Assembly: GCF_015355625.1 (NCBI RefSeq) | Contig: NZ_JACLAF010000018.1 | Coordinates: 1 to 64,000 of the forward strand | Reading direction: 5' to 3' | Source of the DNA: Tamlana sp. I1 | GTDB lineage: Bacteria; Bacteroidota; Bacteroidia; Flavobacteriales; Flavobacteriaceae | DNA length: 64,000 bases | Shown: positions 3,842-14,874 of the stretch, piece after piece | Numbering within the stretch: the first letter of the stretch is position 1 | Layout: every line of letters begins with the position of its first letter | Made by a program: the position numbers and the translations under genes | The notes under the pieces: model-generated | The model's input: the letters and a program-made list of their open reading frames with translations, nothing else | What the model was told of the DNA's origin: nothing | The model's database searches: none

Positions 3842-6841
3842 ATGAAAATACTTAATTATATAACAATTTTATTGTTCATGTGTTTTGTAGGAAACCCCGC
3901 GTTTTCACAAAGATTAATAACAGGTACCGTAAAGGCTGAAAGTAATGCCGTTCCTTTGGTAGGCGCAAATGTTGTAATACCTAGCTCAAGTAAAGGTGTT
4001 GTAACCGATTTTGATGGGAATTTCTCCATTGAAATTCCTGAGAGTGTAACTCTTTTAGAAGTATCTTATATAGGTTATGAAACTAAAAAAGTACAACTTA
4101 CAAATCAAAACAGATATGAAATTAAGCTTAAACAAGGCGAAGTTTTAGATGAAGTGGTTGTGGTTGGATACGGTACACAATCAGCAAAAGATATTAGCAG
4201 TAGCATTGTAACTATTAAAAATGAAGATGTTGCTAAAATTCCTTCCTCAAGCTTTGAAAATACCATTCAAGGGCAAACACCTGGGGTTAATATTTCAGCG
4301 TCATCTGCAACACCAGGATCTGCAGTAAATGTCAATATTAGAGGTGTTTCGTCAATTTCAGCTAGTAGTCAACCCTTATTTATTGTTGATGGTGTGCCTC
4401 TAGTTTCTAGAAATAATTCTGCATTAAATAGTAATATTCAGCCTGCAAACCCTATTGCAGATATTAATCCAAGCGATATCGAATCGGTAACCATTTTAAA
4501 AGATGCGGCAGCAGCTTCAATTTATGGTTCTCGTGGTGCTAATGGTGTCATATTAATAAAAACCAAAAGAGGTTCTCAAGGCAAAACTTCGGTCGATATA
4601 GGGTATTATACAGGGTTTTCAACCATAACCAATACACCAGAACTTGTTAGTAGCGATCAATTTAAATCGTTTTTTAATACAGCTGCAGAGTTTGACGGTC
4701 TTGGTAGCGACTATTTCGATTGGATAGACACATCTAGTGGTCAAAACACCAAAATTTTTGATGAGATTTTTAGAACAGGAATCACACAAAATTTAGATGT
4801 TAGCTTTAGTGGAGGTACCGATAAAACACGCTTTTATTTAAGCGGAAACTATTTCGATCAACAAGGTATTCAGATAGGACAAGGTTTTAAAAGGTTAAGT
4901 ACGAGAATCAATTTAGATCATAATGTTAGTGATAAAATTAAAGTAGGTACAACCACTTTTATAAGTCGCGGTGATCACCAACGAACCATTAACGAAAACG
5001 ACGAATATGGGGTGGTTATTAATGCACAAGGTTGGGATCCTACAGCACCAATTAAAGACGGAAATGGCGACTATACCAATCCGTTTGATTACAACACATG
5101 GTGGCCTCTAGAGAATCCTGTTTATATTGCCGAAGAGTATATCAATACATCACGTAGTACCCGTATTCAAAGTTCGAATTTTTTGGAATGGAAAATCATT
5201 CCTGATTTAAAATTTAGATCGGCATTTTCTTTAGAATATTCAAACTTTGTTGAAGATTCTTTTGTGCCTGTAGGATCCAATAAAGCACCAAATGGAGAAG
5301 CTATATTTGCAACTTATGAAGAGACCACCTGGCAATGGGAAAATACTTTAAATTACAACAAATTAGTAGCCGATGTTCACGCCTTTGATGTTACTGCTGG
5401 TTGGACGCTTCAAGAAACTAAAGCACAATTTTCAGATCAGTCGGGCGTAGGTTTCGCTACCAATAATACATCAAGTTTATCGGCAGCAGGAACCATTCTA
5501 ACGAGTACTTCTGGGAAAAATCAGTTTGGTTTACAATCTTTCTTCGGAAGAACAAATTACACCTACGATAGTCGCTACATTTTATCATTTACATTAAGAG
5601 CCGATGGTTCGTCACGATTTGGTAAAGACAATCAATATGGTTATTTCCCTTCTGGTTCTTTGGCCTGGAGAATCAATAAAGAAAACTTTTTCGATGTTGA
5701 AAGCATTTCTAATTTAAAAATTAGATCCAGTTATGGTATCACAGGAAACCAAGAGATTTCTTCAAACTGGGTAGGTACATATTCGTTAAACGCGAATTAT
5801 AACGGTGTGCCTGGAATCGCTCCAAACCGTTTAGAAAATGATAAACTAGGCTGGGAGAAAACAAAACAATTTAATATTGGTTTGGATTTTGGGATGTTTA
5901 ATCAGCGCTTAAATTTTACAGCCGATTATTTTAATAAACAAACCGAGGACCTGCTTTTAAGTGCTGGTGTATCTGGCCTAACAGGTTTTGGGTCGGTGTT
6001 TCAAAATATTGGAGAAATACAAAACACAGGTTTCGAATTTAGTGTGAATGCCAGTATTATTGATGGAGCAAAATTTAAATGGGATTCTGGGTTTAATGTG
6101 ACTTTTTTAGAGAATCAAATAAATAAACTACAAAATGATGGCGAGTTAATAGGTAGAAACCACATTTTAAAAGAAGGTGAGGCGGTAAGTACTCTATATT
6201 TAATTGAATACCTAGGTGTAGATCCTCAAACTGGTGATGCCATGTTTACCGATGTTAATCAAGACGGTGTTATCGATTTTGACGATAGAAAAATTGTAGG
6301 CAGTGCTTTGCCAAACTATTTTGGAGGTTGGACAAACTCATTATCATATAAAGGCTTTAGCTTAACAGCAAATTTCCAATTCTCTGGAGGAAACAAAATT
6401 TTTAACCAAAGTAGACATGTTTATGAGAATTTCGGATTTACAAGAAGCGGCTTGCCTTACGCTAATATTAGTCAGCGTGTTTATGATAACTATTGGAGAG
6501 AACCAGGGCAAGTTACCGATGTACCACGACCATCTACCGAATCGGGACAAATGCAACGTTTTAGTACACAGTACTTAGAAGATGGCGATTATATTCGTTT
6601 AAAAACTTTACGTTTAGGCTATAATCTTCCTAGAAATGTACTTAATAAATTGGGGATAAATAATACTTTGGTTTATATACAAGGGCAGAATGTATTTACA
6701 ATTACTGATTATTTAGGTTTCGATCCAGAAGTTTCAACGAATACCTCTAGTCAAGGCGATTTAAATGTATTGCAAGGTGAAGACTTTGGTACTCTAGGAC
6801 AAGCACGCACATTTACAATTGGTTTAACAACTTCATTTTAA
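3842..6841 (+). CDS. SusC/RagA-family TonB-dependent outer-membrane transporter
   Basis: This 999-aa outer-membrane protein is the importer half of a SusCD pair. After a signal peptide (ending near NPAFSQR) comes a carboxypeptidase-regulatory-like domain (about residues 24-100; LVGANVVIPSSSKGVV, VTDFDGNFSIEI). The TonB-box/plug region starts at VVVGYGTQ (about 106) and includes the diagnostic KDAAAASIYGSRGANGVI (about 220-237). A 22-stranded barrel follows, ending in an aromatic C-terminus (TIGLTTSF). It imports oligomers with energy from TonB/ExbBD, while the SusD lipoprotein acts as a lid. The next gene is that SusD. The downstream isoaspartyl peptidase and S51 peptidases suggest a beta-aspartyl peptide or polymer as cargo rather than a glycan; that is inference from context. 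Confidence 0.95.
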   Translation: MKILNYITILLFMCFVGNPAFSQRLITGTVKAESNAVPLVGANVVIPSSSKGVVTDFDGNFSIEIPESVTLLEVSYIGYETKKVQLTNQNRYEIKLKQGEVLDEVVVVGYGTQSAKDISSSIVTIKNEDVAKIPSSSFENTIQGQTPGVNISASSATPGSAVNVNIRGVSSISASSQPLFIVDGVPLVSRNNSALNSNIQPANPIADINPSDIESVTILKDAAAASIYGSRGANGVILIKTKRGSQGKTSVDIGYYTGFSTITNTPELVSSDQFKSFFNTAAEFDGLGSDYFDWIDTSSGQNTKIFDEIFRTGITQNLDVSFSGGTDKTRFYLSGNYFDQQGIQIGQGFKRLSTRINLDHNVSDKIKVGTTTFISRGDHQRTINENDEYGVVINAQGWDPTAPIKDGNGDYTNPFDYNTWWPLENPVYIAEEYINTSRSTRIQSSNFLEWKIIPDLKFRSAFSLEYSNFVEDSFVPVGSNKAPNGEAIFATYEETTWQWENTLNYNKLVADVHAFDVTAGWTLQETKAQFSDQSGVGFATNNTSSLSAAGTILTSTSGKNQFGLQSFFGRTNYTYDSRYILSFTLRADGSSRFGKDNQYGYFPSGSLAWRINKENFFDVESISNLKIRSSYGITGNQEISSNWVGTYSLNANYNGVPGIAPNRLENDKLGWEKTKQFNIGLDFGMFNQRLNFTADYFNKQTEDLLLSAGVSGLTGFGSVFQNIGEIQNTGFEFSVNASIIDGAKFKWDSGFNVTFLENQINKLQNDGELIGRNHILKEGEAVSTLYLIEYLGVDPQTGDAMFTDVNQDGVIDFDDRKIVGSALPNYFGGWTNSLSYKGFSLTANFQFSGGNKIFNQSRHVYENFGFTRSGLPYANISQRVYDNYWREPGQVTDVPRPSTESGQMQRFSTQYLEDGDYIRLKTLRLGYNLPRNVLNKLGINNTLVYIQGQNVFTITDYLGFDPEVSTNTSSQGDLNVLQGEDFGTLGQARTFTIGLTTSF

Positions 6842-6940
6842 AAAAAGATTGAGATGCGAGCATGCTAGAAACATTAACATTCAAAGGAATGAATGTTAAC
6901 GATTAGCATGAAACCATTAAATAACAATAAATATAGACAC

Positions 6941-8293
6941 ATGAAAAAAATAAATATTTGGTTTATAACATTAGTATCATGTTTAAGCCTAACTTTAATT
7001 GGTTGTAGCGATATTTTAGAGGTGCAACTTGATGATGAAATTCGATCTGAAGACGCCATTACCGATGCCATATCATTAAAATCGGCGGTGGTAGGTCTTT
7101 ACGATATCTTACAAAGCTCTACCTATTATGGTGGTGAGTTTGTTTTAGCACATGCCTTAACAGGAGGTATTGCCGATGCAACAGGCTTTAGAGAACGTTT
7201 TACACAATTAGATAATGCCATAATTCCAACCTCTAACTTGTATGTTGAAAGTGCATGGATAGATGCCTATGCTTTAGTAAATGCAAGTAACTTAATTTTA
7301 GAAAAAGCAGACGAATTACAATTAGATGATCCCAACTCAAAAGGGTCGGCGCACTTTTTTAGAGCATTAGGACTTTTTGATGCCTTACGTCAGTTTGGGC
7401 AGTTTACAGATTTAAATTCCGATTATGGTGTTCCCGTTTACACGAATTATATCAATGCAAATACAGCCTTAACCATTCCACGTGCTTCGGTTTCAGATTC
7501 TTATAATCAAATTACATCCGATCTTTTAAAGGCTATCGATATGTTGGAATATAGCGACAATAAACTATATGCTACCAAAGGTGCTGCTGAGGCTTTGTTG
7601 GCAAGGGTTTATCTATACCAAGGCGCGTATGCTTTGGCAGAACAATATGCTGATACCGTTTTAGGTAATTTTGATTATGAATTAAATTACGATTATAACG
7701 ATATTTATTACGATGAGGAATCTTTAGAATCAATTTTAGAACTACAATTCTTAGACACCGATGGTAATGGTTTAACCTCGTTATTATCGGTTTCCCCGCC
7801 AGAGGTATCTGCTAATTATGGCGATTTCTATGTGTATATGGCAGATGATGACGACCCAAGAGGTGATTTATATTATGATAATGGAAGAATTGTTTTTGTA
7901 GATAAATATGGTATTAATGATGGTGAAGTAACAGCAAATGCTATTATTTTAAAATTATCTGAAATGTATTTGATTAAAGCCGAAGCCCAAGCAAGGCAAA
8001 ATCCTACCAATTTAACAAATGCTATAGCCACTTTAAATGAAGTAAGGACTCGTGCGTTACCAAGTATGCCTATTACAGCGACTGATGCACCGGATTATGA
8101 TGCATTTGTTGGTGTTTTATTGGATGAAAGAGCTAGAGAACTTGCTTTTGAAGGACATAGATGGTTTGATATCGTGCGTTTAGGTAGAGCAGAAGCTATT
8201 TTGGGAATTGAAGCATTTAGAACGGTTTATCCAATTCCACAATCAGAAGTTTCAATTTCACAAGGCGTAATTCAGCAAAACCCTGGGTACTAA
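6941..8293 (+). CDS. SusD/RagB-family surface lipoprotein
   Basis: This is a 450-aa outer-membrane lipoprotein, the substrate-binding lid of the SusC-like transporter 99 bases upstream. The ATG at 6941 is chosen over an in-frame one 48 bases earlier because it starts a clean lipoprotein signal (MKKINIWFITLVSCLSLTLI then GCSD). Family signatures are ITDAISLKSAVVGLYDIL near the N-terminus, TPR-like helices (GAAEALLARVYLYQGAY), LSEMYLIKAEAQAR, and the C-terminal LDERARELAFEGHRWFDIVR. The protein is shorter than glycan-type SusD proteins (usually 500 or more). A strong terminator follows directly, so the SusCD pair is partly uncoupled from the peptidase genes downstream. Confidence 0.95.
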   Translation: MKKINIWFITLVSCLSLTLIGCSDILEVQLDDEIRSEDAITDAISLKSAVVGLYDILQSSTYYGGEFVLAHALTGGIADATGFRERFTQLDNAIIPTSNLYVESAWIDAYALVNASNLILEKADELQLDDPNSKGSAHFFRALGLFDALRQFGQFTDLNSDYGVPVYTNYINANTALTIPRASVSDSYNQITSDLLKAIDMLEYSDNKLYATKGAAEALLARVYLYQGAYALAEQYADTVLGNFDYELNYDYNDIYYDEESLESILELQFLDTDGNGLTSLLSVSPPEVSANYGDFYVYMADDDDPRGDLYYDNGRIVFVDKYGINDGEVTANAIILKLSEMYLIKAEAQARQNPTNLTNAIATLNEVRTRALPSMPITATDAPDYDAFVGVLLDERARELAFEGHRWFDIVRLGRAEAILGIEAFRTVYPIPQSEVSISQGVIQQNPGY

Positions 8294-8313
8294 TAGCAAA
8301 TGTAAAACCCTTG

Positions 8314-8359
8314 CCAAGAAGTCTGTTTGTTATAAAAATAAAAGACTTCTTGGTTTTTT
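8314..8359 (+). terminator. Rho-independent terminator after the SusD-like gene
   Basis: A perfect 11-bp stem (CCAAGAAGTCT with AGACTTCTTGG) closes an 18-base loop and is followed by six T residues. It lies between the SusD stop and the isoaspartyl peptidase start at 8414, so read-through or a separate promoter must serve the downstream genes. Confidence 0.85.
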
Positions 8360-8413
8360 AAAATTTAGAGTTTTGCAAGGCTGAAAAGGAGTGAATAAGT
8401 TATATTGATAAGA

Positions 8414-9352
8414 ATGAATAAAAATAAAAAATTTTCATTGTGTATTCATGGTGGAGCAGGTGTAATAAGTAAAGAAGAGCTTTCTAAAGCAGAAAAAGCG
8501 TCTATAGTTGCCCATTTAAAGCAAAGTTTAACTGCAGGAGAGCGTATATTAGAAAAAGGAGGATCTGCATTAGATGCCGTTTGTGCATCTGTTGAGGTTT
8601 TAGAAAATAGCGCCCATTTTAATGCAGGTCATGGCGCTGTGTTTTCTAGAAGTGGTAAGCATTTTTTAGAAGCATCGGTTATGGAGGGCAAGGCATTACA
8701 AGCCGGATCGGTAGCAAATTCAGAAAGAGTTAAAAACCCTGTTTTATTTGCAAAAGCATTATTGGCCCATAAAGATGTGGTAATGATGTCTGGAACCAAC
8801 GCCGATGTTATGGCAGAAAAGATGGGCTGCGATATGGTAGAAAATAATTATTTTGATATTGATTTTAGAAAAAAGCAATGGGAACAAGCTAAAAAGCTTT
8901 CTGAAGATGCTATTTTCTTAGATCATTCCAATTTAAAAATGGGAACCGTTGGCGCCGTTGCTATCGATACTGAAGGTAACGTAGCGGCAGCAACCTCTAC
9001 AGGGGGGATGACAAACAAACTCGATGGTCGCGTGGGCGATACCGCAGTTATTGGTTGTGGTACCTATGCCAATAATAAAACTTGCGCGGTTTCGTGCACA
9101 GGCATTGGCGAGTATTTTATTCGAGGAACTGTAGCCTCATTAGTCTCTAATTTAATGGAGTTTGCTAATCTTTCCTTAGAAGAAGCTTCAAAAAAAGCCA
9201 TCCAAGAACAGGGTGTCTTGGGCGGTGAAGGTGGTTTAATTGCTATCGATAAAGATGGAAAAATAGCGATGCCATATAATTCAGGAGGTATGTATCGTGG
9301 TTATGTTACAGAAACCGACAAAAAAGTGATGATTTGGGATACCGAAGCCTAA
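8414..9352 (+). CDS. Isoaspartyl peptidase / plant-type L-asparaginase (Ntn hydrolase)
   Basis: This 312-aa protein has no signal peptide and is therefore cytoplasmic. The family (IaaA/EcAIII type) splits beta-aspartyl dipeptides and asparagine after autocleavage that exposes a Thr nucleophile. The start CIHGGAGVIS is the family N-terminus. The cleavage site and nucleophile lie at about residue 178 in LKMGTVGAVAIDTEGNVAAA. Substrate-binding segments STGGMTNKLDGRVGDTAVIG and CTGIGEYFIRG follow. The ATG at 8414 is preferred to a TTG nine bases upstream. It leads a run of peptidase genes: the cyanophycinase-like gene begins 32 bases after its stop. In that setting it would take the beta-Asp-Arg or similar dipeptides released by the S51 enzymes to free amino acids. 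Confidence 0.9.
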   Translation: MNKNKKFSLCIHGGAGVISKEELSKAEKASIVAHLKQSLTAGERILEKGGSALDAVCASVEVLENSAHFNAGHGAVFSRSGKHFLEASVMEGKALQAGSVANSERVKNPVLFAKALLAHKDVVMMSGTNADVMAEKMGCDMVENNYFDIDFRKKQWEQAKKLSEDAIFLDHSNLKMGTVGAVAIDTEGNVAAATSTGGMTNKLDGRVGDTAVIGCGTYANNKTCAVSCTGIGEYFIRGTVASLVSNLMEFANLSLEEASKKAIQEQGVLGGEGGLIAIDKDGKIAMPYNSGGMYRGYVTETDKKVMIWDTEA

Positions 9353-9384
9353 ACCAATTTCAAAACCATTCAAAAATACATGAG

Positions 9385-10281
9385 ATGAGAACTGTTTTAT
9401 TACTATTTTTTTTATGTTGTTTTTTTATTGGCTGTGAAACTAAAAATGATTCAAAGCGTGATAAAGTTGATATAATTGCACAGCAGGCTTCAAATTACGC
9501 CAAAGGGAAATTATTCATTATTGGTGGAGGAAAGCGCCCAAAAGCCTTGGTTGAAAAACTTATGGCAGTAAGCGAACTTTCCAAAGACGATTATATGGTG
9601 ATTTTACCCATGTCGAGTGCCGAACCGGATTCAGCCGTGTTTTATGCGTCTAAGCAATTTTTAGATTTTGGGGTGCCTTCAGGAAAAATAAAAGGGTTCA
9701 ATTTTAAAAAAGATGACCTTCACCCACAATGGATTGATTCTCTTAAACAAGCGAAACTGATTTATATGACGGGTGGCGATCAAACTAAATTTATGGATAT
9801 TGTGTTAAATACCAATGTGCATGAAGCTATAAACACGGCCTATCACAACGGAAGTACCATCGCCGGAACCAGTGCTGGAGCCGCAGTAATGAGTAATAAG
9901 ATGATTACAGGTAATGAATATAAGCATCCTGAATATACAGGAGATTTTAGAACGATTGAAGCTGAAAATATAGAAATAACCAAAGGCTTAGGTTTGCTTA
10001 AAAATGTCATTATAGATCAACATTTCATAAAAAGAATGCGTATGAATAGACTGCTTAGTGTTGCTTTAGAGCACCCTAAAAGTATGGCTGTTGGTATCGA
10101 TGAATCTACGGCGATTATTGTAGAAAACCACTCGGCAACGGTTACTGGGTTGTCACAGGTTGTTGTGGTAGAAAATAAAGCTTCAAAAGTGTATCAAAAA
10201 AATGGATTGTTAGGTGGTGACTCCTTGCAAGTTAAAGTGGTCTTGCCAGGAAAAACGTTTCAACTACCTATTCAAAATTAA
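9385..10281 (+). CDS. Cyanophycinase-like S51 peptidase, lipoprotein
   Basis: This is a 298-aa serine peptidase of family S51 (cyanophycinase/CphB type). The ATG at 9385 starts a lipoprotein signal (MRTVLLLFFLCCFFIGC), so the enzyme is membrane-anchored and exported. The nucleophile elbow GTSAGAAV is at about residues 160-167. GGDQTKF, the IDQHFIKRMRMNRLL segment with the catalytic His, and GIDESTA with the family Glu are all present and match cyanophycinases closely. Known members hydrolyse cyanophycin (multi-L-arginyl-poly-L-aspartate) to beta-Asp-Arg dipeptides. It lies between the isoaspartyl peptidase and the permease (14-base gap), which supports a beta-aspartyl substrate. Other S51 members cut alpha-Asp dipeptides (PepE), but the DQHF block argues against PepE. 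Confidence 0.88.
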   Translation: MRTVLLLFFLCCFFIGCETKNDSKRDKVDIIAQQASNYAKGKLFIIGGGKRPKALVEKLMAVSELSKDDYMVILPMSSAEPDSAVFYASKQFLDFGVPSGKIKGFNFKKDDLHPQWIDSLKQAKLIYMTGGDQTKFMDIVLNTNVHEAINTAYHNGSTIAGTSAGAAVMSNKMITGNEYKHPEYTGDFRTIEAENIEITKGLGLLKNVIIDQHFIKRMRMNRLLSVALEHPKSMAVGIDESTAIIVENHSATVTGLSQVVVVENKASKVYQKNGLLGGDSLQVKVVLPGKTFQLPIQN

Positions 10282-10295
10282 TTAAGAAAAAAGCT

Positions 10296-11681
10296 ATGCA
10301 GATAAAGAAGTTTCCAGATACCATTACGATAATTCTAGTTATAAGTTTGTTCTTTATTGTTTTAACATGGATTATTCCGTCTGGTGAATTTGATAAAACC
10401 ATCGTAGACGGACGCGAAGTTATTGTAGCAAATTCGTATCGTGAAGTGGAAGCTGCACCCCAAGGCATTGGAGCTTTTTTAACAGCCCCAATTAAAGGGT
10501 TTACTTCGGCGGCTTTTGTTATTGCTTTTGTTTTTTTAGTTGGAGGGGCTTTTTCGGTTTTAAATGCTACAGACGCTATAAATGCGGGATTATTTCGAAT
10601 TATAACTTTTGGAAAGGATTATCCGCAATATAAGATTGCCGTTTTGGCAGGCATAACTGCTTTGTTTTCATTGGCAGGCGCTACTTTTGGTATGAGTGAA
10701 GAAGTATTAGTTTTTATACTAATAACCATTCCTTTAGCAAAAGCCATGGGCTACGATGCCTTATTAGGAACAGCCATTCCCGTTTTAGGAACTGGGGTAG
10801 GTTTTGCAGGAGCAATTACCAATCCATTTACCATAGGGATCGCTCAAAGTATTGCTGAAATCCCTATGTTTAGTGGGGTGGAATATAGACTTCTTGTTTG
10901 GGTAATGCTCACTTCTATTGCCTGTTTTGCCATTTCAAGATATGCCATGAAAATGGATAAAGATCCTAGCAATAGTCTGCTTTTTCATTTAAATACTGAA
11001 GATGAAGCGACCCTGGATCCTGTAGATTTTCCAGAGCTCAGCACTAAAAGGAAACTCGTTTTAGTAAGCTTTTTTTTAAGCCTCGTCATACTGATTGTTG
11101 GGGTTGTATATTTAGGGTGGTATATTAATGAAATTGCGGGTTTATTTATTGCTTTAGCTATAGTTTCGGCTATTATAACTAAGATTCCGGTGCATAAAGC
11201 AACTTCCGTTTTTATTGCAGGTGCTAAAGAGATGATGACTGCAGCATTGGTTATTGGGTTGGCTAAAGGTTTATTAGTGATTGCCCAAGATGGAAAAATC
11301 ATTGATACCATTTTAAACGAAGTGGCTTTAGTTGCTGGTAATATGCCAAAATTTGTATCGGCAGAACTCATGTTGATTTTTCAATGCGGTTTAAACTTTT
11401 TTATTCCTTCGGGATCTGGGCAAGCCGCACTTACAATGCCTATAATGGCGCCTTTAAGTGATTTAATTGGGGTAAGTAGGCAAGTTGCAGTTTTAGCGTT
11501 CCAAATGGGCGACGGCCTTACCAATATTATTGTGCCCACAAGCGGGGTGACCATGGGGGCTTTATCCATAGCAAAAATTCCTTATAGTATATGGTTGAAA
11601 TGGATTGCGCCTATATTTATTGTATTAGTTGTTGTGGCTATGTTGCTTATGCTACCACCACTATTAATTTTTACTTGGTAA
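10296..11681 (+). CDS. YfcC/DcuC-type carboxylate or amino-acid permease
   Basis: This is a 461-aa inner-membrane protein with roughly 12 hydrophobic segments, of the C4-dicarboxylate anaerobic carrier (YfcC/DcuC) group in the ion-transporter superfamily. Typical features are the N-terminal FPDTITIILVISLFFIVLTW, the re-entrant loop GATFGMSEEVLVF, ITNPFTIGIAQS, the second loop NFFIPSGSGQAALTMPI, and GDGLTNIIVPTSGV. Members are annotated as arginine/ornithine, basic amino-acid or dicarboxylate carriers, and substrate cannot be told by eye. It starts 14 bases after the cyanophycinase-like gene and is thus co-transcribed, so aspartate, arginine or a beta-Asp dipeptide moving from periplasm to cytoplasm is the natural guess. 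Confidence 0.85.
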   Translation: MQIKKFPDTITIILVISLFFIVLTWIIPSGEFDKTIVDGREVIVANSYREVEAAPQGIGAFLTAPIKGFTSAAFVIAFVFLVGGAFSVLNATDAINAGLFRIITFGKDYPQYKIAVLAGITALFSLAGATFGMSEEVLVFILITIPLAKAMGYDALLGTAIPVLGTGVGFAGAITNPFTIGIAQSIAEIPMFSGVEYRLLVWVMLTSIACFAISRYAMKMDKDPSNSLLFHLNTEDEATLDPVDFPELSTKRKLVLVSFFLSLVILIVGVVYLGWYINEIAGLFIALAIVSAIITKIPVHKATSVFIAGAKEMMTAALVIGLAKGLLVIAQDGKIIDTILNEVALVAGNMPKFVSAELMLIFQCGLNFFIPSGSGQAALTMPIMAPLSDLIGVSRQVAVLAFQMGDGLTNIIVPTSGVTMGALSIAKIPYSIWLKWIAPIFIVLVVVAMLLMLPPLLIFTW

Positions 11682-11803
11682 CTCTGAATTATGAAATAAT
11701 ACCAACTATAACCTAAAATGTGCCCTATAATGTGTTTCTGTGACACTCATTTCCAAATTATTTAGGACGCTTTTTAAATCATAAATGGAATAAAAAATTG
11801 AAG

Positions 11804-12871
11804 ATGATTAATTTAAAAATAATGTTATTTAGTATGAGCGTGTTTTTTATCTCGTGTTCATCGAGTGAAACGCCCAGCATACCTTCAGAAGGAAAAGAAC
11901 CTACAGTTCCAAAAGACTATACTTCCTATAAAATTGGAAATGCTAGCGATAAAATAACGAATCCCTTAGGAGGTATTTGTTTGATGGGCGGTGCTACCGA
12001 AAATGATGAAGCTATGAAATGGTTTTTAAAACGTGCCCAAGGTGGTGATGTTTTAGTGCTGAGAACTTCAGGAACCGACGGGTATAACCGCTATATGTTC
12101 TCAGACTTAGGGGTGGATTTAAACTCGGTGGAAACCATCGTATGTAAAAATGAAAAGGCAAGTCAAGATGCAACTTTGCATGAAAAAATTAAGCATGCTG
12201 AAGCCATTTGGTTCGCAGGGGGCGATCAATGGGATTATATTTCCTTTTGGAGAGATACAGAAATAGCAGCACTTATTAATAAAGGCATTAAAGAGAGAAA
12301 CATTGTTATTGGTGGTACAAGTGCTGGTATGGCCATTCAAGGCGGGTATTATTATTCAGCACAAAGGGGGTCTATAAAATCAGATCAAGCTTTGCAAAAT
12401 CCTTACGATACCGATCTAACTATTGGTCATTCAAGTTTTATAAATCACAACATTTTAGCCGATGTGATTACAGATACACATTATGATAATCCAGATAGAA
12501 AAGGACGACATGTTGCTTTTTTAGCACGTATTGCTAAGGAAAATAACATAGCAGCAAAGGGGATTGCATGCGATGAATATACTGCTGTTTGTATCGATGA
12601 AAAGGGGTTAGCAAGCGTATTTGGCGGATATCCAGACCATGATGATAATGCCTATTTTATCCTGCCTAATCCTGATATTCTAAATAACATTCCCGAAACC
12701 TGTGAAGAAAACAAACCTTTAGAGTGGAACAAAGGCGAAAAAGCGCTTAAAGTTTATGCTATAAAAGGCACTAAAGATGGTAAGAAAACCTACGATTTAA
12801 CCGATTGGAAAACAGCAACTGGTGGCGCATGGCAATACTGGTTTGTTACCAATGGGGTATTAAATGATTAG
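11804..12871 (+). CDS. Second, divergent S51 (cyanophycinase-like) lipoprotein
   Basis: This is a 355-aa exported lipoprotein (signal MINLKIMLFSMSVFFISC; ATG at 11804 preferred to TTG at 11798). It has the S51 layout: GGATENDEAMKWF, GGDQWDYISFW, nucleophile elbow GGTSAGMAIQGG (about residues 168-179), DTHYDNPDRKGRH with a His where cyanophycinases have DQHF, and CDEYTAV in place of GIDExTA. It is clearly diverged from the gene at 9385, being longer by about 55 residues, with a C-terminal part (SVFGGYPDHDDNAYF onward) of no recognised family. A 122-base gap separates it from the permease. It probably attacks the same class of beta-aspartyl or modified aspartyl polymer at a different bond or chain position. 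Confidence 0.8.
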   Translation: MINLKIMLFSMSVFFISCSSSETPSIPSEGKEPTVPKDYTSYKIGNASDKITNPLGGICLMGGATENDEAMKWFLKRAQGGDVLVLRTSGTDGYNRYMFSDLGVDLNSVETIVCKNEKASQDATLHEKIKHAEAIWFAGGDQWDYISFWRDTEIAALINKGIKERNIVIGGTSAGMAIQGGYYYSAQRGSIKSDQALQNPYDTDLTIGHSSFINHNILADVITDTHYDNPDRKGRHVAFLARIAKENNIAAKGIACDEYTAVCIDEKGLASVFGGYPDHDDNAYFILPNPDILNNIPETCEENKPLEWNKGEKALKVYAIKGTKDGKKTYDLTDWKTATGGAWQYWFVTNGVLND

Positions 12872-12924: not shown

Positions 12925-13848
12925 TTAGTTAGCAACATTGATTTTTAAAAATTTTTGAATCTCATCTAAAGAAGGTATCGAGCTTTGTGCACCATTTCTA
13001 GTGACTGAAATAGCCGCAGCAGCATTCGCAAACGGAATCGCTTCACTAAAATTTTTGTGCTGGGTTAAGGCAACAGCAAGCGTGCCATTAAAAACATCGC
13101 CGGCTGCCGTTGTATCTACGGCATTGACATGGTACGCCTTATAATGCTTGATGTGGTCTTTGTTTGCATGCAAGCATCCCAAAGCACCTAAAGTTATAAT
13201 AACCTGTTTTACACCTTTATTTAATAGTTCTTTTGCTGCTTTTTCCGCATTTTGCAAGTCAGTAACTTTGATGCCGGTTAAAATTTCAGCTTCGGTTTCA
13301 TTAGGTGTTATTAGCCACGTTTTTTGTAGGATGTCTTCAGTTAAGTGTTGTGCAGGTGCAGGATTTAAAATGACTTTTACATCATTTTCAAAGGCAGTTT
13401 CAATAGTGTATGTAACCGTTTCTAAAGGAATTTCGAGTTGTACTAAAGCAAAGCTTGCCTTTTTTAAAACAGGTTTTAGTTTTTCAATATCCGCACGGCA
13501 TAAATTCATATTAGCACCTGGGGCCACGGCTATAGAATTTTCGCCTTTTTCTGAAACCAGAATCTGAGCGATGCCAGTGGGTACTTTAGGGTCTACTAAA
13601 GTGGATTCTTGTGCCAAACCTTCCTTTATAAAATGCTTTTTCATAGTCACTCCAAAAACATCAGTCCCGATTTTAGTGATAAAAACGAGATTTCCGTTTG
13701 CGCGTTTTGCTGCAATGGCTTGATTGGCTCCCTTTCCTCCAAAAACAGAAGCCGATTCTCCGCCTAAAACGGTTTCTCCAACCTTGGGTATGTAAGGAAC
13801 CCTAATAATTAAATCCATGTTGGAGCTTCCTATAACAACTAAATCCAT
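12925..13848 (-). CDS. rbsK: Ribokinase (PfkB family)
   Basis: This is a 307-aa cytoplasmic sugar kinase making ribose 5-phosphate from ribose and ATP. The N-terminal MDLVVIGSSNMDLIIRVP, the first PfkB signature with GGKGANQAIAAKRANG (about residues 38-53) and the second, DTTAAGDVFNGTLAVAL, with the catalytic Asp are typical of RbsK. The length is standard. It is downstream of the transporter gene on the same strand, with 21 bases between them, so the pair is probably one operon for uptake and activation of ribose or a ribose-releasing nucleoside. It converges on the second S51 gene, with 53 bases between the stops and no strong terminator seen there. Confidence 0.9.
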   Translation of the reverse strand: MDLVVIGSSNMDLIIRVPYIPKVGETVLGGESASVFGGKGANQAIAAKRANGNLVFITKIGTDVFGVTMKKHFIKEGLAQESTLVDPKVPTGIAQILVSEKGENSIAVAPGANMNLCRADIEKLKPVLKKASFALVQLEIPLETVTYTIETAFENDVKVILNPAPAQHLTEDILQKTWLITPNETEAEILTGIKVTDLQNAEKAAKELLNKGVKQVIITLGALGCLHANKDHIKHYKAYHVNAVDTTAAGDVFNGTLAVALTQHKNFSEAIPFANAAAAISVTRNGAQSSIPSLDEIQKFLKINVAN

Positions 13849-13869
13849 ATGTTTAATTTAAAATTAATT

Positions 13870-14874
13870 TCAGACAATCTTCGCATAAATAATTAATCCT
13901 ATTCCAATAATAAAGCATAAAAACATAAGGCTAATGAGCCAGTTTTTAGCTTGGGGCAGCGTTTTAAATTCTTTCCAGATATATACACCCCAAATGGCGG
14001 CAACTAAAGTAGCGCCTTGACCTAAGCCATAGGCAATTGCTGGGCCTGCTTGTTCTGAAGCTAAAATGCTAAAAGACATGCCTATTCCCCATATTGCGCC
14101 GCCTAATAGGCCAATGCCGTGTAATTTTGGATTCCCTATTTTAAAGTAATCTTTGTAGGTTACAGCTTGTCCCGTTATAGGTTTATACATATTAATGCTG
14201 TTGAATAAGAAATTTGAGACCAATAAGCCTATAGAAAATACCACAAGCGCTGTATACGGTGTTAGTTTTCCAATTTCTGGACTAGCAAAATTTGAAGCCA
14301 TAGATATGGCCACATACTTATAGAAAAACCCCATAGCAATACCTGCTAATAATGAAATTACAATACCCTTAGATGACGATTGTTTCTTATTTTCGGAAAT
14401 AACCTTATAGGCTAAAGCATCCATTACAATTGCTAAAGCTACAAAAGCAACGCCTAAAAATAGATAAATGGGGTCGCCTTCTGGTGTCGATACATAATTT
14501 GTAATAACCCCTAAAACGAGTGCGATGCCAATACCTATAGGGAAAGCAATCGCCATACCTGCAATATCAATGGCGATAACCAATAATAAATTAGCAAAAT
14601 TGAAAATAATACCGCCTAATATAGCATACCAAACATATTTTAAATCGGCTTGCTGTATGTCATTAATAAATGAACGGCCTTCATTGCCAATCGACCCGAG
14701 GGTTAAAGCCAAAATGAGGGTGATGAGTAAGATGCCAAGCGAATAATCCCAATAAAATAGTTGGAATGGCCATTTTTTACTGGATAACTTTTGAGTGTTT
14801 GCCCAGGAGCCCCAACAGAGCATAGTAATAAAGCAGGAAAATACGGCTAATGGATAATTGTCTATAATATACAT
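13870..14874 (-). CDS. DMT-superfamily sugar/ureide-permease-like transporter
   Basis: This 334-aa protein has ten predicted membrane segments and almost no soluble parts, as in the GRP/RhaT and plant ureide permease branches of the drug/metabolite transporter superfamily. Recognisable landmarks are MLCWGSWANTQKL in helix 1, GGIIFNFANLLLV, GMAIAFPIGIGIALVLGV and GLGQGATLVAAIWGVYIWKE near the C-terminus. Bacteroidota homologs are often labelled multidrug or sugar transporters. The partner gene, ribokinase, points to ribose or a nucleoside/purine-like compound as cargo, but the substrate is inferred only from that neighbour. It is the first gene of the minus-strand pair, with more than 800 bases of non-coding DNA upstream. 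Confidence 0.75.
   Translation of the reverse strand: MYIIDNYPLAVFSCFITMLCWGSWANTQKLSSKKWPFQLFYWDYSLGILLITLILALTLGSIGNEGRSFINDIQQADLKYVWYAILGGIIFNFANLLLVIAIDIAGMAIAFPIGIGIALVLGVITNYVSTPEGDPIYLFLGVAFVALAIVMDALAYKVISENKKQSSSKGIVISLLAGIAMGFFYKYVAISMASNFASPEIGKLTPYTALVVFSIGLLVSNFLFNSINMYKPITGQAVTYKDYFKIGNPKLHGIGLLGGAIWGIGMSFSILASEQAGPAIAYGLGQGATLVAAIWGVYIWKEFKTLPQAKNWLISLMFLCFIIGIGLIIYAKIV

What the first reader, a model, noticed from the sequence alone, without database searches (positions are those of the whole stretch)
3842..12871. PUL-like locus for a beta-aspartyl polymer (cyanophycin or isoaspartyl peptides)
A SusC/SusD pair is followed by a cytoplasmic Thr-nucleophile isoaspartyl peptidase, a lipoprotein with the full cyanophycinase signature (GTSAGAAV, DQHFIKR, GIDESTA), a YfcC/DcuC-type permease and a second diverged S51 lipoprotein. 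Seen: the genes, motifs, signals and order. Known: cyanophycinases release beta-Asp-Arg and plant-type asparaginases split beta-aspartyl dipeptides. Inferred: surface S51 enzymes cut the polymer, SusCD takes up fragments, the permease brings products in, and the peptidase finishes. SusCD pairs are usually tied to glycans, so use on a beta-linked polypeptide would be notable.
Basis: partly seen in the sequence, partly recalled or inferred. Interest (0 to 1): 0.8.

Follow-up and report, generated by a model that had tools for sequence, protein, structure and literature searches.

The report
Gene set for eating cyanophycin
Six neighbouring genes look like a kit with which a flavobacterium takes up and breaks down cyanophycin, an arginine-aspartate storage polymer of other microbes; one such locus is already in print, but the comparison here suggests that the kit recurs across its phylum and how its steps may be arranged in the cell.

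Summary
Window 3842-12871 (+) holds SusC, SusD, a cytoplasmic Thr-nucleophile isoaspartyl peptidase (IaaA), a cyanophycinase lipoprotein (S51a), a YfcC/DcuC permease and a second S51 lipoprotein (S51b). The same six genes in the same order occur in 9 other genomes. SusC+SusD lie near S51a relatives in 34 of 42 full-length named loci, against 3 of 20 hand-placed windows and 1 of 18 full-length loci of other S51 genes; a more distant S51a group lacks the pair (0 of 20). 55 of 61 S51a-linked SusCs fall in one block of a SusC tree. S51a keeps the cyanophycinase catalytic and pocket residues. Arginine-catabolism genes near some relatives favour cyanophycin over general isoaspartyl peptides. The genome has no cyanophycin synthetase over the cut-off, so it looks like a scavenger. 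In 21 of 21 scored pairs YfcC goes with a signal-less peptidase, so YfcC probably imports intact beta-Asp-Arg. Export signals suggest that S51a is periplasmic and S51b more surface-like. A cyanophycin utilization locus in Bacteroidetes is already in print (Ben Hania 2017, not read here), so this is a new member of a known kind. Nothing biochemical was tested.

The parts
3842..6841 (+). SusC/RagA-type TonB-dependent outer-membrane transporter (999 aa), member of a SusC block tied to cyanophycinase loci
   Evidence: TIGR04056 891.8 bits; Plug and barrel domains; SusC tree, sister to Aquimarina L105
6893..8293 (+). SusD-like lid lipoprotein; likely start 6941
   Evidence: PF07980, PF14322 over cut-off; lipobox and acidic residues after Cys (CSDILEVQLD)
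8405..9352 (+). IaaA: Ntn (Thr) isoaspartyl peptidase without signal peptide, so cytoplasmic; likely start 8414; nucleophile T181
   Evidence: PF01112 325.9 bits; 2zak/1jn9 matches, beta chain starts at residue 181; T181 invariant in 10 sequences; the only PF01112 match in the genome
9334..10281 (+). S51a: cyanophycinase lipoprotein, likely periplasmic; likely start 9385, lipidated Cys34; Q150, S180, D228, Q229, H230, R234, R236, R239, E257 correspond to CphB Q101, S132, D172, Q173, H174, R178, R180, R183 and the triad Glu (E201 by recall)
   Evidence: TIGR02069 over cut-off; phmmer alignment to 3en0; those columns invariant in 17 and in 28 sequences; AF2 model nearest cyanophycinases in the PDB
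10296..11681 (+). YfcC/DcuC-type inner-membrane permease, proposed importer of beta-Asp-Arg
   Evidence: PF03606 334 bits; NF008611 YfcC 368.8 bits, under cut-off; in scored pairs goes only with signal-less peptidases
11798..12871 (+). S51b: diverged S51 lipoprotein of a clade that also holds secreted enzymes with T9SS-like tails; likely surface-exposed; likely start 11804; CphE-like DTH motif; R178 position is P232
   Evidence: PF03575 38.5 bits; TIGR02069 64.8 bits, under cut-off; alignments; AF2 model nearest 3en0; S51b clade separate in tree

Best explanation
[quoted passage not shown] Proposed path: S51b, on the cell surface, attacks the polymer; SusCD imports the pieces through the outer membrane; S51a in the periplasm finishes them to beta-Asp-Arg; YfcC carries beta-Asp-Arg through the inner membrane; cytoplasmic IaaA splits it into Asp and Arg, which feed general amino-acid catabolism. 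Shown by sequence: the genes, their order, the residues, and the absence of a signal peptide on IaaA. Inferred: substrate, cell locations of S51a and S51b, direction and cargo of YfcC, and every activity.
For: Same six-gene cassette in 9 other genomes. S51a passes the curated cyanophycinase cut-off, keeps the nine catalytic and pocket residues (residue list mainly from passages of PMC3235067), and its model is nearest cyanophycinases, ahead of dipeptidase E. SusC+D near S51a relatives: 34 of 42 full-length named loci against 3 of 20 hand-placed windows (p 9e-7) and 1 of 18 full-length other-S51 loci (p 4e-8); 15 of 20 in the top loci taken by handle. 61 S51a-linked SusCs need 3 label changes on the tree against 26 in shuffles. 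Arg-catabolism genes in 11 of 42 stretches against 0 of 20; ADI-like and CtlX directly behind S51b in 5 of the 9 cassettes. YfcC in 14 of 42 against 0 of 20. No CphA over cut-off in the genome. YfcC goes with a signal-less peptidase in 21 of 21 scored pairs. PMC10206079 reports that cyanophycinase and isoaspartyl dipeptidase genes cluster in 45 of 52 genomes that lack cphA1 (passages).
Against: No activity, induction or growth data. Cyanophycinase-like 7uqv is titled 'pseudo-CphB' and, as I recall from its paper, is inactive although it carries the same motifs (alignment), so residues do not prove activity. S51b fails the cyanophycinase cut-off and lacks one pocket Arg. Cyanophycinases are described as exo-enzymes, so it is unclear what size of piece SusCD would carry. 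In the window itself no arginine-catabolism gene adjoins. The locus was not found in 5 of 5 same-genus genomes. 8 of 42 full-length named loci and 5 of 20 handle loci lack the SusCD pair, and the next, more distant S51a group (L077-L096) lacks it in 20 of 20. IaaA is in only 11 of the 80 named S51a stretches, and also in 12 of 20 other-S51 loci, so IaaA beside S51 is not special to this system.
Confidence: 0.78

Rival explanations
1. A locus for scavenging general isoaspartyl peptides or mixed peptides (RagAB-like use of SusCD), with S51 enzymes of broad or unknown specificity; cyanophycin is at most one substrate.
For: The one IaaA and the one IadA from cyanophycin clusters that PMC10206079 assayed show no preference for beta-Asp-Arg (passages). 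SusCD uptake of oligopeptides is proposed for a flavobacterium (PMC9723704 passage). S51b is under the cyanophycinase cut-off.
Against: S51a keeps the full cyanophycin pocket; arginine-specific catabolic genes near relatives; a SusC block tied to S51a.
Confidence: 0.15
2. SusCD imports dipeptides made wholly outside: both S51 lipoproteins are on the surface, SusCD takes in beta-Asp-Arg, and nothing is cut in the periplasm. (A variant of the best explanation, not exclusive with its substrate.)
For: S51a is a lipoprotein here, and S51b relatives include secreted enzymes with T9SS-like tails.
Against: Mature N-termini of 34 S51a lipoproteins carry few acidic residues (mean 0.76 D/E in +2 to +6), against 2.65 in 23 neighbouring PKD-propeller lipoproteins (acidic export signal described in PMC5080379, passages).
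Confidence: 0.2
3. One or both S51 proteins are catalytically dead and act as cyanophycin-binding proteins for SusCD.
For: 'Pseudo-CphB' 7uqv has the same motifs and the top Foldseek rank for S51a; S51b lacks R178.
Against: Ser, His and Glu of the triad are present in both; in S51a they are invariant across 28 chosen sequences.
Confidence: 0.07

Closest known systems
Cyanophycin utilization locus of Salinivirga cyanobacteriivorans L21-Spi-D4 (Ben Hania et al. 2017)
   Same: Scavenger locus of a Bacteroidetes strain with cyanophycinase genes, an isoaspartyl dipeptidase and a transporter, as described in passages of PMC10206079. As I recall its abstract, the transport complex is homologous to PULs. 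A Salinivirgaceae MAG fetched here (L114) has S51a, SusC, a SusD-like gene, IadA (TIGR01975 488 bits) and an S51b-like gene with a T9SS tail (read as two ORFs) in one stretch.
   Different: That locus uses iadA; the window uses cytoplasmic iaaA, a YfcC permease and a lipoprotein S51b. The paper itself was not held, so the gene-by-gene comparison is with L114, not with the published strain; the SusC of L114 lies outside the window's SusC block, that of another Salinivirgaceae MAG (L110) inside it.
CphB (3en0) and CphE cyanophycinases
   Same: S51a: residues, fold, curated family. S51b: fold, Ser-His-Glu, D-T-H as in CphE (PMC3235067 passage).
   Different: Both are lipoproteins in a SusCD operon; S51b has P in place of R178 and is below the TIGR02069 cut-off. 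Flavobacterial CphB-type enzymes beside CphA also have DTH, so DTH alone does not mark CphE.
RagAB and other peptide-importing SusCD systems
   Same: SusCD used for peptides instead of glycans (PMC9723704 passage; otherwise recalled).
   Different: The proposed cargo is an isopeptide-branched polymer with dedicated hydrolases in the operon.
E. coli IaaA (2zak, 1jn9)
   Same: Ntn family, Thr nucleophile, no signal peptide.
   Different: Fails the NCBIfam beta-aspartyl-peptidase equivalog cut-off (292.6 against 567 bits); sits in a polymer-uptake operon.

Membership tests
Cyanophycinase (TIGR02069), S51a | Score over the curated equivalog cut-off | tested here: met
   159.8 against 126.6 bits
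Cyanophycinase (TIGR02069), S51a | Ser-His-Glu triad and pocket Gln101, Asp172, Gln173, Arg178, Arg180, Arg183 | tested here: met
   All nine columns invariant in A1 (17 sequences) and A5 (28 chosen of 80 loci plus window); residue list from PMC3235067 passage, CphB numbers of His and Glu inferred or recalled
Cyanophycinase (TIGR02069), S51a | Releases beta-Asp-Arg from cyanophycin | not testable with these tools
   Needs an assay
Cyanophycinase (TIGR02069), S51b | Score over the curated equivalog cut-off | tested here: not met
   64.8 against 126.6 bits
CphE-type extracellular cyanophycinase, S51b | Export signal; Thr in place of Gln173; Arg at the 178, 180 and 183 positions | tested here: inconclusive
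   Lipobox, T227, R234 and R237 present; 178 position is P232
IaaA / plant-type asparaginase (PF01112) | Family match and catalytic Thr at the autocleavage site | tested here: met
   325.9 bits; T181
beta-aspartyl-peptidase equivalog NF007589 | Score over the curated cut-off | tested here: not met
   292.6 against 567 bits
SusC/SusD pair | TIGR04056 SusC next to a SusD_RagB lipoprotein | tested here: met
Polysaccharide utilization locus | Carbohydrate-active enzymes with SusCD | tested here: not met
   None of the six genes has a glycoside-hydrolase or similar match at E 1e-3 in Pfam or NCBIfam
Cyanophycin utilization (scavenging) locus | Clustered cyanophycinase, isoaspartyl dipeptidase and transporter in a genome without cphA1 | tested here: met
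   no CphA over cut-off
Cyanophycin utilization (scavenging) locus | Induction by, or growth on, cyanophycin | not testable with these tools
   Needs culture

The most novel reading that the evidence does not exclude
Cyanophycin uptake by SusCD is a phylum-wide, modular trait with its own SusC lineage. The last step follows a topology rule: either YfcC imports intact beta-Asp-Arg for a cytoplasmic peptidase (IaaA or a PepT-like M20), or an exported peptidase (IaaA, M20 or M28) splits it in the periplasm and other carriers import the amino acids. The loci without IaaA or IadA would then contain the isoaspartyl dipeptidase that PMC10206079 calls undiscovered in Bacteroidota, most likely the exported M20 or M28 enzyme near S51a.
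Probability: 0.45. Interest if true: 0.65.

Novelty: new member of a known kind. Interest (0 to 1): 0.5.

Why it matters
It makes a testable case that Bacteroidota, best known for eating polysaccharides, use the same outer-membrane machinery for a nitrogen-rich storage polymer of cyanobacteria and other bacteria. It gives named organisms as an entry point (Flavobacterium anhuiense and F. aquariorum carry the same cassette), a predicted cargo for a YfcC-type permease, and named candidates for the dipeptidase described as undiscovered in Bacteroidota.

Tried and rejected
Chance adjacency of SusCD and S51: rejected by hand-placed windows (3 of 20 with the pair; SusC alone 5 of 20) and by other S51 loci (1 of 20; 1 of 18 full-length). 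The windows come from 19 of the 20 handle genomes and the window's own, not from the named genomes, and were placed by hand, not by a random generator. Of the 20 other S51 loci, 11 have an 874-891 aa neighbour; of 6 large neighbours scanned, 5 were cyanophycin synthetases over cut-off and 1 was DNA polymerase I.

Dipeptidase E (alpha-aspartyl) for S51a: rejected; cyanophycinases rank above it, and the genome's separate third S51 gene, which I take for that type without a family test, lacks the DQHF..R.R..R motif.

Own-use of stored cyanophycin: rejected for this genome; no CphA over cut-off. Of 21 genomes checked, 7 have CphA, and none of these carries the exact cassette.

Promoter and terminator scans gave no more than shuffles: nothing learned about regulation. 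An HMM category for the long S51 proteins took over part of S51b, so S51b counts there are too low; searches are used instead. A crude signal-peptide rule misfired on cytoplasmic IaaA and was replaced; the label 'T9' was set by length alone, and looked for a tail motif (recalled) instead: 23 of 29 long S51b have it. The 80 named loci were found with patterns that include the DQHF motif, so the full motif in 76 of 76 S51a of 250 aa or more (4 of 80 loci have no such ORF) is partly by selection. Rows dropped: in the SusC tree, SusCs under 800-850 aa, farther than 9 kb or near-identical; in the S51 tree, rows under 250 aa or 60 bits and every second S51a.
Full report
What is there. The window (contig C9 of a 4.04 Mb genome in 32 contigs) holds six intact + strand genes at 3842-12871 with gaps of about 120 bases or less: SusC, SusD, IaaA, S51a, YfcC/DcuC permease and S51b. 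Family matches are, solved relatives. Four starts listed by the ORF tool are probably too early. The neighbours look like different business: a DUF255 protein upstream, and a ribokinase with a ureide-permease/GRP-like transporter on the opposite strand downstream.

Is it conserved? S51a was not found in the 5 same-genus genomes searched (one weak partial match, E 8.8e-4); 16 of 60 genomes, the window's own included, have some match. In 395 genomes of the phylum, own included, 111 have a match at E 1e-3 or better, many of them weak. The exact order SusC-SusD-IaaA-S51a-YfcC-S51b occurs in 9 other genomes: L057 (the same contig as L115), L058 (same genus code as L057), L105 (Aquimarina), L106, L107, L109, L111, L113 and L116 (Flavobacterium). 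In L109 the SusC reading frame is in two pieces.

Is SusCD tied to S51a? Of the 20 loci taken by handle (the 19 best and one), 15 do. Controls: 3 of 20 hand-placed windows and 1 of 20 loci of weaker S51 genes (1 of 18 full-length). Against it: none of 20 loci of the next, more distant S51a group (L077-L096) has the pair; 15 of these 20 have a TonB-dependent receptor of another type and 15 a MurR/RpiR regulator. YfcC is in 35 of the 80 named stretches and IaaA in 11; IaaA is also in 12 of the 20 other-S51 loci. Fisher tests are; related genomes make the p-values too small.

Does SusC belong to the system? In a FastTree of 92 SusCs, 61 linked to S51a need 3 label changes (shuffled mean 26); 55 of the 61 lie in one block (local support 94), from Flavobacteriaceae through Fulvivirgaceae to Bacteroidales and a Salinivirgaceae MAG (L110); the window's SusC is sister to that of Aquimarina. 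The other 6 (L067, L071, L072, L074 in one clade; L112 with L114 in another) lie elsewhere, so SusC was probably recruited more than once. The background set of 31 is mostly from this one genome, where the nearest paralogue is 37% identical.

Which substrate? S51a has the residues that PMC3235067 (passages, citing Law 2009) lists for CphB catalysis and pocket; they are invariant in 17 and 28 sequences, the CphB numbers of His and Glu being inferred or recalled. Its AF2 model (mean pLDDT 88.0) matches cyanophycinases at E 4e-21 to 7e-20, ahead of dipeptidase E at 2e-11. S51b has the triad and the D-T-H form described for CphE, but P where R178 should be; its model (pLDDT 88.5) is also nearest cyanophycinase 3en0. 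S51a, S51b and the other S51 genes fall apart in a tree. The best pointer to arginine is the neighbourhood: ADI-like and CtlX genes follow S51b in 5 of 9 cassettes (L057, L058, L111, L113, L116), and ornithine aminotransferase, sometimes arginase, and an Lrp/AsnC-type regulator sit near S51a in other Flavobacterium loci. Counted together, arginine-catabolism genes occur in 11 of 42 full-length stretches against 0 of 20 windows; 10 of the 11 are Flavobacterium. The window has none next door, though its genome carries CtlX elsewhere. The genome lacks CphA over the cut-off, as do 14 of 21 checked genomes including this one.

How does it work? Window IaaA has no signal peptide. Across loci, a peptidase of four classes on the same strand within 3.5 kb of S51a was scored in 52 cases (other peptidases, and loci without one, were not scored). 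All 21 with YfcC nearby are signal-less (12 IaaA, 9 PepT-like M20). Of the 31 without YfcC, 19 pass the export threshold (5 IaaA, 8 M20, 6 M28), 6 are PepT-like and signal-less, and 6 fall just under the threshold but look exported by eye (L060, L061, L083, L133, L164, L175). Two of the exported-IaaA loci (L067, L069) carry an SDF dicarboxylate symporter (DctA family for L067). The cases fall into about five lineages, and some rows are duplicate contigs, so this is not 52 independent tests. It says that YfcC most likely brings in the uncut dipeptide. For location, residues +2 to +6 after the lipid Cys hold on average 0.76 acidic residues in 34 S51a, 1.45 in 11 S51b, 2.04 in 51 SusD and 2.65 in 23 PKD-propeller lipoproteins. 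Acidic export signals in Bacteroidetes are described in PMC5080379 (passages). Many S51a have no lipobox by my rule. Of 29 long S51b relatives 23 have a T9SS-like tail motif; the one scanned as a whole (L058) has a Por_Secre_tail domain. Hence S51a periplasmic, S51b surface: inference.

What is known? PMC10206079 (passages) names a 'cyanophycin utilization locus' (Ben Hania 2017, strain L21-Spi-D4) and scavenging clusters with transporters, and says that the isoaspartyl dipeptidases of Firmicutes and Bacteroidota remain undiscovered, in the context of cphA1-cyanophycinase clusters. PMC6243061 (passages) says that Salinivirga has two S51 proteins of different build, the relative of one with a Por secretion domain. 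PMC3400609 (passages) proposes cyanophycin as a TonB-transporter substrate in Citromicrobium. The Ben Hania paper was not held; that its abstract calls the transport complex homologous to PULs is recalled. A Salinivirgaceae MAG (L114) shows S51a, SusC, a SusD-like gene, IadA and a T9SS-tailed S51b-like gene (two ORFs) together, in a layout that fits that description. My searches for cyanophycin with SusD, SusC, TonB or polysaccharide utilization showed no title or abstract start of a survey of such loci across the phylum, and I saw no statement of the YfcC rule in the passages read; subscription papers are mostly missing from this library.

Limits. All evidence is comparative. As I recall, pseudo-CphB (7uqv) has these motifs and no activity. 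The IaaA assayed in PMC10206079 is promiscuous (passages), so the peptidase alone does not fix the substrate.

Noticed in passing
L077-L096: A SusD-less variant: in many of these loci a PepT-like M20 gene, S51a, often YfcC (9 of 20), a T9SS-tailed protein, a MurR/RpiR regulator and a TonB-dependent receptor lie in a row.
   Followed up: partly
L177, L181, L184 and similar Flavobacterium loci: SusCD, ornithine aminotransferase, Lrp/AsnC-type regulator, S51a and a penicillin-acylase-like protein together, in some with an M28 peptidase directly before S51a, without IaaA: M28 or the acylase may be the missing dipeptidase.
   Followed up: partly
L110, L123, L124, L137 and others: PKD plus propeller-like lipoproteins with acidic export signals follow SusD in many S51a loci (33 of 80 named); they could be surface cyanophycin-binding proteins. 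The window has none.
   Followed up: partly
window 12925-14874, minus strand: Ribokinase next to a ureide-permease/GRP-like transporter, facing the operon; looks like a separate nucleoside or ribose unit.
   Followed up: no
window 15713-63800: Large carbohydrate region: three paralogous BNR-repeat secreted proteins, several sulfatases and glycoside-hydrolase-like genes; named by sight only.
   Followed up: no
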